A DNA stretch of 38,971 bases from an uncultured Microcaldota archaeon. GTDB taxonomy: Archaea > Micrarchaeota > Micrarchaeia > Anstonellales > Bilamarchaeaceae. The notes under the pieces were generated by a model, which was given only the letters and a program-made list of their open reading frames with translations, ran no database searches and was not told the origin of the DNA. The stretch is from contig CAILMU010000240.1 in assembly GCA_903835325.1 (NCBI GenBank), positions 1 to 38,971 on the forward strand, given 5' to 3'. The position numbers were made by a program, and so were the translations under genes. Below, piece after piece: positions 2,147-9,693 of this stretch. Within the stretch, counting starts at the first letter, position 1; the number at the start of each line of letters is the position of its first letter.

Positions 2147-2868
2147 TCGAAACGCCTCCGGATGTAGCCTCCATGAAGAAGCAGGTTCAGGCCGTCCTCG
2201 GCCCTGGTGTGGACGATGTTGTTGGCTTTCGCGAATTCCTTGATGTCAATCGTTCCGCCATGCATCTTTATCCAGTTGAAAAGCGATTCCTTGAGAAGGT
2301 CGTCGCTCATGCCGTTCATTTTCGAGATGCGCTTCTCGAGCTCCTCGCGTTTCTGCTCGCATTCGAGAAGTATCCTCGTGTTCGCCTCGCTCGAGCGGAC
2401 CAGGTCGTTGTATTTGGCGACCAGGTCGGTGTGCCTGGCCTGGAGTTCTGTGAACTGGGTCGACATCTCGGACGCGTCATGGTCTACGACTTTGGAAAGC
2501 TCTGTTATCACTTCATTCACTGAGGAATAGACGCAGCTCGGAGCGATGCTGTAGTATTCCTCTGATACCCGCAGGATGTTCAGGAAGGTCGGAAGCACCT
2601 CGATGAGGCGGCTTACCCGGCTGCGGTTCTCAGGGATGGAGAAGACGAGCTCTATCTCGTCAGGGCGGAACTCTATCTGATATTCCAGATACGGGTTGCC
2701 CCGGAGATCCTGGCCCTTTATCTTCTCTATCGAGAGCGTGTCGCTCATGAACGCTATCTTGCTGAAACCAAGGCCGCTGAAGAGGCCGGCTAATGGCTTC
2801 AGGCTGCCTTTTCGGCTGGCCGCTATCCTTATCCTTTCCTCATCCGGCATTTGAATCATCCAACACAA
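2143..2868 (-). CDS. Hypothetical coiled-coil protein with possible C-terminal winged-helix-like region
   Basis: 241 aa ORF; central coiled coil (FTELQARHTDLVAKYNDLVRSSEANTRILLECEQKREELEKRI) and C-terminal LFNWIKMHGGTIDIKEFAKANNIVHTRAEDGLNLLLHGGYIRRRFE. Overlaps end of the ATPase gene. Confidence 0.7.
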   Translation of the reverse strand: MCWMIQMPDEERIRIAASRKGSLKPLAGLFSGLGFSKIAFMSDTLSIEKIKGQDLRGNPYLEYQIEFRPDEIELVFSIPENRSRVSRLIEVLPTFLNILRVSEEYYSIAPSCVYSSVNEVITELSKVVDHDASEMSTQFTELQARHTDLVAKYNDLVRSSEANTRILLECEQKREELEKRISKMNGMSDDLLKESLFNWIKMHGGTIDIKEFAKANNIVHTRAEDGLNLLLHGGYIRRRFE

Positions 2869-4306
2869 CGTTGACGACGCCTTTCGTGGCTTTCCTCATC
2901 TTCACCAGCGAGAACACCTTGATGAGGTTCTTCTCATCGATACCGAGCTGGCGGAGGAACGATATTATAGACGGCCTGGAATAGCCGAACTTCTCCAATA
3001 TGGCGACAAGCTTCTCGCCATCGAGCATACCGTCGCCCTTCTCGAACTCCCGTTTAAGCATGCTGAGCTGGCTCTCGTTCAGGCCGAATTCGTATAGCAT
3101 CCTGACAAACTGCTCCCGTTCAATCTCAACGTCCATATCCCCACCATGTATCCTGAACAATAGCAATGGCTCTTCGCCGTCTATCTTATCCATCAAGAAC
3201 GTCATGACTCTGGATTGCCTTGCCGAGAAAATCATGTTCACGGCGGCATCGCCTACACCGAAACGGGATATCTCCGAATCGATGAAGTTCGAATATCCGA
3301 CGGATGCGCGCACATAGTCCCTGAACTCCTTGAGGACAAGGCGCAGGACGAATATCGTCCCGATGTTGCTGAATATCGTCTTATGGATGTCCGTCGGGTT
3401 CTGGGTCGCGACTATCAATGAGAAGTTGTACTTGCGGCCTTCGCGGACAATCGTGATGACATCGCTCCGTTCATCCTGGGCTATCTTCCAGGCTTCGTCC
3501 AGGACCACGAAGAGGCGCACGCGCTTGTCTTCCTCCTTCAGGCTTTCCGAACGCATTATCTCCTTGATATATTGCAGTATCGTGAGCCCTGCTAGGCTCC
3601 TCATCTCCTCTGTCGGGAGGTTGTGGAGGTCTATGCAGACAAGGCCGCTCCTGGTCAAGGTCTTGAGGTCGAAAGTCGAGGTGCCTGCGAAGAAATCCGT
3701 GCCTTCTGATGTGAAGCGCTTCAAGAGGCGCGCGGCTTTCTTGTCGCCCTTGTCTTCGAGGACTTCGACGACATCCAATAATGTCGGCTTGTTGCCCTTG
3801 CCTTCTTTCACCTTGCGGTCATAGACGGCTTCGAGCGCCTCTTCGATATGGTCCCTCTCGTTCGGATAGCTCTTGAGGTCGCAGAGTATGTCGAGCGAGG
3901 ACACTATCTGCTTTATCCTGCTCCGTGAATTCGTGCCGACCAGGTCGAGTATGTTGAGGCGCTCCTCGCCGAGGTTGATGACCTTTCCCCCGGCCTGTTT
4001 CACCCAGCGGTCGTATTCCCCGACCCAGTCAAGGATGATGGCGTTCGTGTTCCAGATGAGGGAGGCCCGGGTGAGGAATGTCTTCACAGTGTAGGATTTG
4101 CCGGCGCCGGTTATACCCAAAATCGCGATATGAGGGTTGATGAGTTTGCTGGGGTCCCAGAAGACCGGCGTCCTGAGGAACCTTGTCTTGCCGATATAGA
4201 CCCCGTCGCTGGGGGCTGAAAGAAGCAGGTCCTTCCTTGGCTCTGGAGGGTGCACTAGAATCATCTTGCGTGCGACTTCCTTGGAGAGCATGTACGATAG
4301 CTTCAT
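2840..4306 (-). CDS. VirB4/HerA-superfamily ATPase (ATPase domain only)
   Basis: 488 aa; GVYIGKTRFLRTPVFWDPSKLINPHIAILGITGAGKSYTVKTF (Walker A with VirB4-like preceding strand), AIILDWVGEYDRW, RLFVVLDEAWKI (Walker B), SLIVATQNPTDI. Confidence 0.88.
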   Translation of the reverse strand: MKLSYMLSKEVARKMILVHPPEPRKDLLLSAPSDGVYIGKTRFLRTPVFWDPSKLINPHIAILGITGAGKSYTVKTFLTRASLIWNTNAIILDWVGEYDRWVKQAGGKVINLGEERLNILDLVGTNSRSRIKQIVSSLDILCDLKSYPNERDHIEEALEAVYDRKVKEGKGNKPTLLDVVEVLEDKGDKKAARLLKRFTSEGTDFFAGTSTFDLKTLTRSGLVCIDLHNLPTEEMRSLAGLTILQYIKEIMRSESLKEEDKRVRLFVVLDEAWKIAQDERSDVITIVREGRKYNFSLIVATQNPTDIHKTIFSNIGTIFVLRLVLKEFRDYVRASVGYSNFIDSEISRFGVGDAAVNMIFSARQSRVMTFLMDKIDGEEPLLLFRIHGGDMDVEIEREQFVRMLYEFGLNESQLSMLKREFEKGDGMLDGEKLVAILEKFGYSRPSIISFLRQLGIDEKNLIKVFSLVKMRKATKGVVNVVLDDSNAG

Positions 4307-4350
4307 GGGTAACTCCGCTTCATTTGTATATTATTAGCTACTCTTTGCAG

Positions 4351-7829: not shown

Positions 7830-8654
7830 TCAGAACAGCGTGTCCTTTATCTCCTCAGATGTCGTCGGCGCGAAGAAGTCCCAGTCGAAGCAGTGTATCA
7901 TCTCAAGGTCGGTCAGTTCCCTGATGTCGCATCCTAAGGAACTCGAAAGTATCGTCTTCAGCTCCTTGGCCTGCCTCGAGACCCTGCTCGTCGCCTCATC
8001 CCGCGTCAAACCGAATGCCGTCGTTGATGCGAAAGCGATTATCTCGACCGGCCTCTCGCCCTGCGTTATCCTTTCCAGAAGCCTGTTCCAGTAGGCGAGC
8101 TCGCGGTCCATGCGCATAGCTTCGTCAGGGGCGATTCGCGCCTCCTTGGATTTCTTCGTCTCGACGATGCTGCGCTTGGTTTTGATGTCATCGATATGGC
8201 CGGAGAGGTCGAGGGTGCTTATCATGAAGCTTATCTTCACGATGTATTTGAGGGAGCTCACAGCCTTCTCGAAGGATTCGAACATCAGGCGCTTCTCCTC
8301 CTGGTCTTTATCCATGGAGCTCTCGTAGAAATTTATCTCCAGGAATTTGGTCGCGTAATACCCCTCGTTAGTCTTGCGGATGATATAATCGCGCGATGGC
8401 GGGATTTCGTAGCCTGCATGCATCTCGACGATGTTGGTCGCTTTTGTTATGGCCGGCATTATCAGGTAGCCGTATTTCCAGAAAGCAAGGCTCACCGTGA
8501 AGCAGACGGCCCCGATCACAGGCCAGAGCGGGTTCCCGTAGAAGAGCGATAGGATTATGCAAAGCACGCCGCCGACCAGGGCGGCAACGGTGATAACGCG
8601 ATTCAGCAGCATATTGATCACATTCGATGCTTGCCAGATAAACCATGCAAGCAT
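7830..8654 (-). CDS. Membrane protein: two N-terminal TM helices plus cytoplasmic domain resembling PrgI/VirB3 fused to a VirB4 N-terminal domain
   Basis: 274 aa; VITVAALVGGVLCIILSLFYGNPLWPVIGAVCFTVSLAFW (2 TM), then RDYIIRKTNEGYYATKFLEINFYE...ELAYWNRLLERITQGERPVEIIAFASTTAFGLTRDEATSRVSRQAKELKTILSSSLGCDIRELTDLEM. CDS is solid; family assignment is inference. Confidence 0.8.
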   Translation of the reverse strand: MLAWFIWQASNVINMLLNRVITVAALVGGVLCIILSLFYGNPLWPVIGAVCFTVSLAFWKYGYLIMPAITKATNIVEMHAGYEIPPSRDYIIRKTNEGYYATKFLEINFYESSMDKDQEEKRLMFESFEKAVSSLKYIVKISFMISTLDLSGHIDDIKTKRSIVETKKSKEARIAPDEAMRMDRELAYWNRLLERITQGERPVEIIAFASTTAFGLTRDEATSRVSRQAKELKTILSSSLGCDIRELTDLEMIHCFDWDFFAPTTSEEIKDTLF

Positions 8655-8667
8655 TATAAAACATCAG

Positions 8668-9693
8668 TCAAATCTGCGCCATTGTCCTAAGGCCTATCTC
8701 GCTTCCTAAGAGCGAGCTCAGCTCTTTCACGAAGACGGCTGTGACCAGGAGCGAGAATATTGGCGCAACCACCGAATAGAGGAGCGATTGGGAGATCGCA
8801 TCGGAATCTGCTTTCGATATGTAAGTGAGGTCGCCGCTGAGGTCTGTAGTCGTATTGTTACCAATTCCGGCAGTGAGGTTGAAGCATCTGGAGCCGTTGG
8901 AGATATTGGCTATGTTGTTGGAGCACCTTCCGCTCATGACATCCAATTTCCCTGCCAATGCATAATTGTCATTGAGGTCCACGACAGGGACCGGGGAATA
9001 GTACGTGTTGTTGTCGAATGCCTGCATGGCCGCCGTCGCGTTGTTTATCCCCGGGGTCGGGTCGGGGAATATCAGGACGAAAGTCGGGTAGAAGAGATAG
9101 AGGCCTATAGCCAGGCCGATCAGGAAACCTCCGACCTTGCGAGTCGCGAACAATGTACGCAGGATGAGGCCTGTCGGGAAAAGAATCCCCAGGACGCTCG
9201 CGCTGATGAACGCAGTCGTCTGCACGTTCAGCGAGACGAGTATCATGGTGAGGTTGAGCAATAAGAGCTGGACGGAAAGCGCCCCGGATATCGAAGAGAG
9301 GCTCGCCATCGGAAGTATGGTGAATGCGCCGAAATTCAATGAGAGCCCCTGGTAGTAGGTGAGCGTCCCCAGGAGGCGCATGAGCTCCTCGAGCATCGAT
9401 AGGAGCGCAGTATTGACATTGGTGAGCGAGCAAAGGAGCTGGGCAGCGACGCTCGTCGCGCTGCATCCTTCGGTCACCAAGGACGAGCTGACTGAAGCGA
9501 CCAGGGCCACAATCGCGGCAAACGAGCCGATGATGGCGGCATTGACGATGGATTGGATGAGCTCCTCTATGCCGAACTGCTCTATCCGCTTGTAACCGAA
9601 AGCGCGGCCTAAACCTATCAGGATCCCTGCAAGGACGATAGATGCCGTGACCACGATCACAGCGATGCCCATGCCGGCGAAATCTTCTGCCAT
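8668..9693 (-). CDS. Polytopic membrane protein, TrbL/VirB6-like candidate
   Basis: 341 aa with at least six hydrophobic segments, a hydrophilic Asn-rich loop with two Cys (SGRCSNNIANISNGSRCFN), and 13 bp from the 7830..8654 gene on the same strand. Confidence 0.8.
   Translation of the reverse strand: MAEDFAGMGIAVIVVTASIVLAGILIGLGRAFGYKRIEQFGIEELIQSIVNAAIIGSFAAIVALVASVSSSLVTEGCSATSVAAQLLCSLTNVNTALLSMLEELMRLLGTLTYYQGLSLNFGAFTILPMASLSSISGALSVQLLLLNLTMILVSLNVQTTAFISASVLGILFPTGLILRTLFATRKVGGFLIGLAIGLYLFYPTFVLIFPDPTPGINNATAAMQAFDNNTYYSPVPVVDLNDNYALAGKLDVMSGRCSNNIANISNGSRCFNLTAGIGNNTTTDLSGDLTYISKADSDAISQSLLYSVVAPIFSLLVTAVFVKELSSLLGSEIGLRTMAQI

What the first reader, a model, noticed from the sequence alone, without database searches (positions are those of the whole stretch)
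2840..9693. Candidate split VirB4 plus TrbL/VirB6-like channel: a chromosomal archaeal T4SS/Ced-like machine
The 488-aa ATPase starts directly at the VirB4 ATPase domain (TPVFWDPSKLINPHIAILGITGAGKS, VLDEAWKI) with no N-terminal VirB4 domain. Gene 7830..8654 has two TM helices plus a soluble domain whose pattern (NEGYYATKFLEI...PVEIIAFASTTAFGLTRDEATSRVSRQAKELKTIL) looks like the missing VirB4 N-terminal domain fused to a PrgI/VirB3-type segment. The adjacent 8668..9693 is a polytopic protein with a large Cys-containing hydrophilic loop, as in TrbL/VirB6/CedA-like channels. Crenarchaeal Ced uses a CedB VirB4/HerA ATPase and a CedA polytopic channel. No relaxase or mobile-element hallmarks were seen, so this could be a domesticated DNA-uptake or protein-export apparatus.
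Basis: partly seen in the sequence, partly recalled or inferred. Interest (0 to 1): 0.75.

Follow-up and report, generated by a model that had tools for sequence, protein, structure and literature searches.

The report
Split-VirB4 secretion machine in Micrarchaeota
Nearly all tiny Micrarchaeota archaea carry a chromosomal relative of the bacterial conjugation machine, with its motor split into two proteins and its own pilus subunits, and it probably moves DNA or other molecules between these cells and their neighbours or hosts.

Summary
On the minus strand lie a VirB4/CedB-class ATPase without an N-terminal domain (2840-4306), a two-TM protein (7830-8654) and a polytopic protein (8668-9693). 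The predicted fold of 7830-8654 hits VirB4 structures first: the top 8 of 350,542 PDB chains, probability 1.00. Its profile matches TrsD-like proteins encoded between PrgI and VirB4 in Gram-positive plasmids (87%, E 4e-6); TrsD is known as remotely homologous to the VirB4 N-terminus. The split-VirB4 idea is therefore well supported. The locus is not peculiar to one genome: the order polytopic, N-domain, ATPase, coiled-coil/winged-helix recurs, and the N-domain gene is in 135 of 146 genomes of the phylum, often at two loci. No T4CP or MobA-type relaxase was found here; a separate canonical HerA exists. Homology of the polytopic protein to VirB6/CedA is only suggestive. I found no description of this system in the papers searched. 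Its function is inferred.

The parts
8668..9693 (-). Polytopic membrane protein (component C), candidate channel, VirB6/CedA-like by topology and position; its N-terminal TM hairpin is pilin-like
   Evidence: motif G..LR....TR..GG, invariant G175, R179, R185, P203; gene order
7830..8654 (-). TM hairpin plus VirB4 N-domain / TrsD-like protein (component N)
   Evidence: top 8 PDB hits all VirB4, prob 1.00; TrsD-like profile 87%, E 4e-6; 135 of 146 genomes in the phylum
2840..4306 (-). VirB4/CedB-class ATPase lacking its own N-terminal domain (component A); Walker A 4094-4117, Walker B near 3480-3511
   Evidence: (CedB E 5e-29, CD1110-type VirB4 2e-28, HerA 5e-14)
2143..2868 (-). Coiled coil plus C-terminal winged-helix-like protein (component W), overlapping the 3' end of the ATPase gene; conserved downstream partner
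   Evidence: no significant Pfam family; winged helix inferred from sequence only
1820..2146 (-). Small basic/disordered protein next in the operon, found in the genus only (c17)
4456..7753 (.). Interrupting genes, not part of the system: radical SAM (4456-5823 -), double Lrp/AsnC-type regulator (5918-6901 +), HAD hydrolase (6926-7753 -)
   Evidence: absent between N and A in most relatives

Best explanation
The locus encodes the membrane core of a domesticated type IV secretion-like machine of Micrarchaeota. SHOWN by computation: the VirB4 role is divided between an ATPase with no N-domain (2840-4306) and a membrane-anchored VirB4 N-domain/TrsD-like protein (7830-8654), conserved together and co-occurring with VirB2-type pilins. 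INFERRED: 7830-8654 anchors the ATPase ring at the inner face of the membrane under the polytopic protein 8668-9693, which acts as channel or pilus platform; the coiled-coil/winged-helix protein 2143-2868 is a cytosolic adaptor; the ATPase extracts pilins (genes elsewhere in this genome) to build a pilus and drives a substrate through the channel. With no T4CP or MobA-type relaxase found and a near-universal chromosomal distribution, it is not a plasmid conjugation system. The most likely role is an intercellular contact and translocation apparatus, host-association as proposed for Patescibacteria or DNA exchange as in Ced/Ted; this last step is inference.
For: ATPase best families are CedB and VirB4, above HerA; of 39 plasmid matches 36 are annotated TraC or VirB4 and two more lie beside PrgI genes; a separate HerA exists in the genome. 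N-protein fold: eight VirB4 chains first, next best probability 0.44; TrsD-like profile match over 154 columns, coiled-coil control 2.7%; the TrsD-like profile itself lies collinear with VirB4 residues 24-244, weakly. Gene order N-A with W downstream, C upstream in type A, repeated across 45 loci. Pilins beside the operon in relatives: 12 of 13 match Pfam T4SS_pilin and 10 of 13 TrbC/VirB2; in 95 of 99 genomes, missing in all three genomes that lack N (p about 3e-5 ignoring kinship). Four tandem pilins in this genome. No PF02534 T4CP in this genome, weak hits in 3 of 40; no PF03432 relaxase in 40.
Against: The channel protein has no significant match to VirB6/TrbL. The TM hairpin of N shows no sequence similarity to VirB3 or PrgI. 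Foldseek TM-scores for N are about 0.4, so the match is distant and partial. Pilin Pfam scores are often below curated cut-offs, and the window genome's own copies match Pfam only weakly, though they match the family profile strongly. No complex of N with A could be modelled. Only one relaxase and one T4CP family were searched. No functional data.
Confidence: 0.8

Rival explanations
1. Function rival within the same machine: a Ced/Ted-type DNA importer. The ATPase pulls DNA from other cells through the 8668-9693 channel for repair by recombination.
For: Best NCBIfam hit is CedB. Ced/Ted are also relaxase-less, chromosomal and use VirB2-like pilins and a polytopic channel whose N-terminus resembles the pilin (PMC9905601); the same pilin-channel resemblance is seen here. 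CedB and CedD divide the VirB4 N-domain between them (PMC11868833), a comparable split.
Against: CedB score is 101 bits against a family cut-off of 700. I saw no recombination or repair genes fixed next to the operon; type A neighbours look like housekeeping genes. Two paralogous loci in most genomes and up to six channel paralogues in some families suggest diversified partners rather than one importer.
Confidence: 0.3
2. Function rival within the same machine: a host-contact pilus and conduit, as proposed for Patescibacteria, used by an epibiont to attach to and exchange material with its host.
For: Similar parts list to the Patescibacteria system: VirB4, TrsD, VirB2 arrays, few relaxases, chromosomal, widespread (PMC12102498). 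Micrarchaeota in culture are host-dependent, and pili-like connections and thin filaments have been seen (PMC5498576, PMC11329633). Tandem pilins and expanded channel paralogues.
Against: No cargo or adhesin identified here; hosts of this lineage are unknown. Similarity to the Patescibacteria layout could be convergent loss of the same parts.
Confidence: 0.45
3. A HerA-type DNA translocase operon for DNA repair, with unrelated membrane neighbours.
For: Pfam DUF87 (HerA central domain) is the top Pfam hit, E 2e-18; PADLOC HerA models hit. In an unrooted tree the ATPase clade lies between HerA and VirB4.
Against: A separate HerA is in this genome and in most relatives (17 of 21). CedB and VirB4 models outscore HerA. 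The conserved partner has a VirB4 N-domain fold. Pilins co-occur.
Confidence: 0.04
4. A remnant or cargo of a conjugative plasmid or integrated element.
For: VirB4-class ATPases are typical of conjugative elements.
Against: Present in 135 of 146 genomes across the phylum, in conserved surroundings beside housekeeping genes, with no MobA-type relaxase or T4CP found in this genome and no tRNA in the window.
Confidence: 0.04

Closest known systems
Patescibacteria (CPR) type IV secretion system (PMC12102498)
   Same: Chromosomal, widespread in its phylum, few relaxases, VirB4 plus separate TrsD (remote homology to VirB4 N-terminus), VirB2-like pilin arrays, small host-dependent cells
   Different: There TrsD is reported beside a VirB4 family and a separate PrgI/VirB3; here the ATPase has no N-domain and the TrsD-like domain is fused to a TM hairpin. 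Archaeal, not bacterial; no recognisable VirB6
Ced system of Sulfolobales and Ted of Thermoproteales (PMC9905601, PMC11868833)
   Same: Archaeal, chromosomal, VirB4-class ATPase, polytopic channel whose N-terminus resembles the pilin, VirB2-like pilins; CedB and CedD each carry part of the VirB4 N-domain
   Different: In Ced each part of the N-domain is still fused to an ATPase domain; here the N-domain protein has no ATPase. CedB score far below its cut-off; CedA could not be compared directly
PrgI - TrsD-like - VirB4 modules of Bacillota and Actinomycetota plasmids (L154, L181-L186, L178)
   Same: Separate TrsD-like protein directly upstream of the VirB4-class ATPase; profile match to 7830-8654; in Embleya a PrgI-annotated protein also matches the TrsD-like query
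   Different: Plasmid-borne; the ATPases (about 600-640 aa) keep 230-260 residues before Walker A, here only about 63
HerA-NurA DNA-end resection
   Same: ATPase superfamily (DUF87)
   Different: Genome has its own HerA; membrane partners and pilins instead
Nanohaloarchaeal giant surface protein plus VirB4-like ATPases (PMC10266531)
   Same: DPANN archaea, VirB4-like ATPases proposed for host interaction
   Different: There an ATPase domain is fused to a giant adhesin and a neighbour carries a VirB4 N-domain; no such fusion here

Membership tests
Type IV secretion system superfamily | VirB4-class AAA+ ATPase | tested here: met
   distinct from HerA of the same genome
Type IV secretion system superfamily | VirB4 N-terminal domain | tested here: met
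   Present as a separate protein: fold match to VirB4 and TrsD-like profile match
Type IV secretion system superfamily | VirB2-type pilin (where present) | tested here: met
   Family A4: T4SS_pilin hits in 12 and TrbC hits in 10 of 13 members, 95 of 99 genomes; many single Pfam scores are weak
Type IV secretion system superfamily | VirB6/TrbL polytopic channel | tested here: inconclusive
   Topology, position and pilin-like N-terminus fit; no significant fold or profile match
Type IV secretion system superfamily | VirB3/PrgI membrane anchor | tested here: inconclusive
   N-protein has a helical hairpin, no sequence match to VirB3 or PrgI
Type IV secretion system superfamily | T4CP (VirD4); not universal in the superfamily | tested here: not met
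   No PF02534 match in this genome; weak matches in 3 of 40 genomes
Conjugative element | Relaxase | tested here: not met
   No PF03432 in 40 genomes; other relaxase families not tested
Ced system | CedB (NF041017, cut-off 700 bits) | tested here: not met
   101 bits: related, not a member
Ced system | CedA/CedA1 pair with pilin-like CedA N-terminus | tested here: inconclusive
Ced system | DNA import, induction by DNA damage | not testable with these tools
   Needs experiment
HerA | N-terminal extension (HAS barrel) before the ATPase domain | tested here: not met
   About 63 residues before Walker A, against 155-179 in the HerA proteins compared
HerA | NurA partner | not tested
   NurA was not searched; no NurA-like gene is a conserved neighbour in the loci viewed

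The most novel reading that the evidence does not exclude
Micrarchaeota carry a phylum-wide archaeal T4SS class in which the VirB4 N-domain is permanently separated from its ATPase and fused to a membrane anchor, with VirB2-type pilus arrays, functioning as the organelle that links these epibionts to host cells.
Probability: 0.4. Interest if true: 0.88.

Novelty: new variant of a known kind. Interest (0 to 1): 0.72.

Why it matters
How DPANN archaea connect to their hosts is an open question; filaments and tubes have been seen in Micrarchaeota co-cultures without a known molecular basis. A conserved pilus-type translocation machine gives concrete genes to test. It would extend domesticated, relaxase-less T4SS to another group of small symbionts, parallel to Patescibacteria, and it shows that VirB4 can be two separate proteins, which bears on how the N-domain couples the motor to the membrane.

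Tried and rejected
Natural fusion of N and ATPase (open frames of 819 and 844 aa in G080 and G077): rejected, one crosses an assembly gap of N, the other is a wrong reading frame. Inteins as the cause of all longer ATPases: true for G024, but others show a linker insertion around residue 165. Sequence searches of the N and channel proteins in PDB, Pfam, NCBIfam, PHROGs: nothing meaningful. Direct profile match of N to Gram-negative VirB4: not significant, though the best segment falls near the VirB4 N-terminus. Channel against R388-type VirB6 and a Gram-positive candidate: nothing. W as the other half of the VirB4 N-domain: no support. The 520-aa gene beside some type A loci is PheRS beta, not part of the system.
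Full report
WHAT IS THERE. The window is contig C240 of a 1.59 Mb, 246-contig assembly; its close relatives are recorded as Candidatus Micrarchaeota. The three genes of the finding are real and all on the minus strand. They are called here C (8668-9693), N (7830-8654) and A (2840-4306). 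A fourth gene, W (2143-2868), overlaps the end of A, followed by a small basic protein (1820-2146).

THE ATPASE. A is 488 aa with Walker A starting at residue 64; the frame is closed eight codons upstream of the start. Its best NCBIfam models are CedB (101 bits) and the CD1110-type VirB4 (99 bits), then VirB4-type models and F-type TraC (62), and HerA (52). Pfam gives the generic HerA central domain and the AAA_10 domain. In plasmids it matches 39 records, 36 of them annotated TraC or CD1110 VirB4. The same genome has another protein with HerA features and about 180 residues before Walker A, found in 17 of 21 relatives; it scores only 25 bits on the CedB model against 101 for A. In a tree of ATPase domains A and its relatives form one clade apart from seven HerA and ten VirB4 proteins (97/98 support); the tree is unrooted and does not say which is nearer.

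THE MISSING N-DOMAIN. With 54 relatives as alignment, N folds with mean pLDDT 84 into a helical hairpin and an alpha/beta domain with an inserted pair of long helices. Against all PDB chains the first eight hits are TrwK/VirB4 chains from R388, probability 1.00, E 6e-4 to 3e-3; the ninth is an unrelated enzyme at 0.44. TM-scores by query length are about 0.4, so it is a partial, distant match, and the aligned part of VirB4 is taken to be the N-domain because N has no P-loop. Sequence evidence came by another route. Plasmids of Bacillota with a VirB4-like ATPase have a hypothetical protein of about 250-330 aa directly upstream of it, after PrgI. A profile of eight of these matches the N family over 154 columns, probability 87%, E 4e-6; a control with a coiled-coil family gave 2.7%. 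The same profile lies collinear on VirB4 residues 24-244 at low significance. [quoted passage not shown] that my plasmid proteins are TrsD is inferred from position and size. The TM hairpin has no sequence match to VirB3 or PrgI.

THE CHANNEL. C folds as a helical membrane protein with pLDDT 83.5 and a conserved G-LR-TR-GG motif. Foldseek gives no significant hit; VirB6 of R388 appears at rank 21 with E 0.55. Profile comparison with six bacterial VirB6 gives nothing. The pilin profile does match the first TM hairpin of C at 87%, E 4e-6, with a PrgI control at 1.4%. The same relation was reported for CedA1 and CedA and, less clearly, for VirB2 and VirB6 (PMC9905601). I therefore call C VirB6/CedA-like by position and anatomy, not by proven homology.

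PILINS. In relatives, small proteins of roughly 80-130 aa, many with a signal-peptide-like start, sit upstream of C or N. Twelve of 13 match Pfam T4SS_pilin (best E 2e-6) and ten TrbC/VirB2; scores are modest and the member shown in full is below the curated cut-offs. Pilins occur in 95 of 99 genomes; the three genomes lacking N (G086, G091, G096) also lack pilins, and two of those lack the ATPase while the third has only a weak match. The window's genome has four in tandem on contig C183 plus one more; their own Pfam scores are weak, so their assignment rests on the family profile.

DISTRIBUTION. N is in 135 of 146 genomes sampled across the phylum, 78 of 84 good-quality ones. Many genomes have two loci: type A as here (C-N-A-W), and type B (N-A, a small protein with cysteine pairs and two TM helices, W, and an 800-860 aa protein with two TM segments). 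In the window genome only one N and one ATPase of this family were found, so type B is absent or unassembled. In some families up to six C copies and two N copies stand in tandem. N and A are under 300 bp apart in 37 of 45 loci; in this window three unrelated genes separate them, and other relatives show different insertions at the same place.

WHAT IS MISSING. No PF02534 coupling protein in this genome and only weak hits in three of 40 genomes; no PF03432 relaxase in 40. Other relaxase families were not tested.

MECHANISM. Shown: a VirB4-class motor, a separate VirB4-N/TrsD-like membrane protein, conserved linkage, co-occurrence with pilins. Inferred: the N protein anchors the motor to the membrane beneath C; the motor extracts pilins to form a pilus and drives transport. 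Whether the cargo is DNA (as in Ced/Ted) or host-association material (as proposed for Patescibacteria, where T4SS genes were found essential for epibiotic growth, PMC12102498) is undecided; I lean to host association because known Micrarchaeota are host-dependent and the pilins and channels are multiplied. Cryo-tomography of a Micrarchaeota co-culture shows nanotubes from the host side and thin filaments from the symbiont of unknown identity (PMC11329633), so the link is open to test.

NOVELTY. Searches of the open literature for Micrarchaeota or DPANN with T4SS, VirB4, VirB or secretion systems found no description of this machine; the Mia14 genome paper lists type IV pili, Sec and Tat in its section on secretion systems. 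Subscription journals and preprints were not covered. I rate it a new variant of a known kind.

Noticed in passing
L021/L061 (G024:C76, minus strand); probably G039:C86: The type A ATPase carries an intein, with what looks like a homing endonuclease part, inside Walker A (GITGSGK | S...HN | SYLVK).
   Followed up: partly
window:4306-7830; L067, L073, L074, L076: The junction between the N-domain gene and the ATPase gene is interrupted by different unrelated genes in several relatives (0.9 to 4.2 kb), as if it were a repeated insertion spot.
   Followed up: partly
L080:1269-9074; L081, L083, L089, L107: Up to six tandem paralogues of the polytopic channel protein and two tandem N-domain proteins in some families.
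   Followed up: partly
L079:12633-15203; L080:13903-16335; L085:13528-16110: Type B loci end in an 800-860 aa protein with two TM segments and a large middle region, no Pfam family; possible extracellular component.
   Followed up: no
L085:12323-12745; L080:12588-12950: Small type B protein with N-terminal cysteine pairs followed by two TM helices, between ATPase and W.
   Followed up: no
window:17775-20078: 767-aa lipoprotein-like membrane protein with no Pfam match.
   Followed up: no
window:9814-10389: Yip1-domain membrane protein directly upstream of the channel gene here and in a few relatives.
   Followed up: no
window:28569-33708: Cluster of long coiled-coil-type proteins flanked by two similar small repeat-type proteins (27983-28450 and 31126-31704); function unclear.
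   Followed up: no
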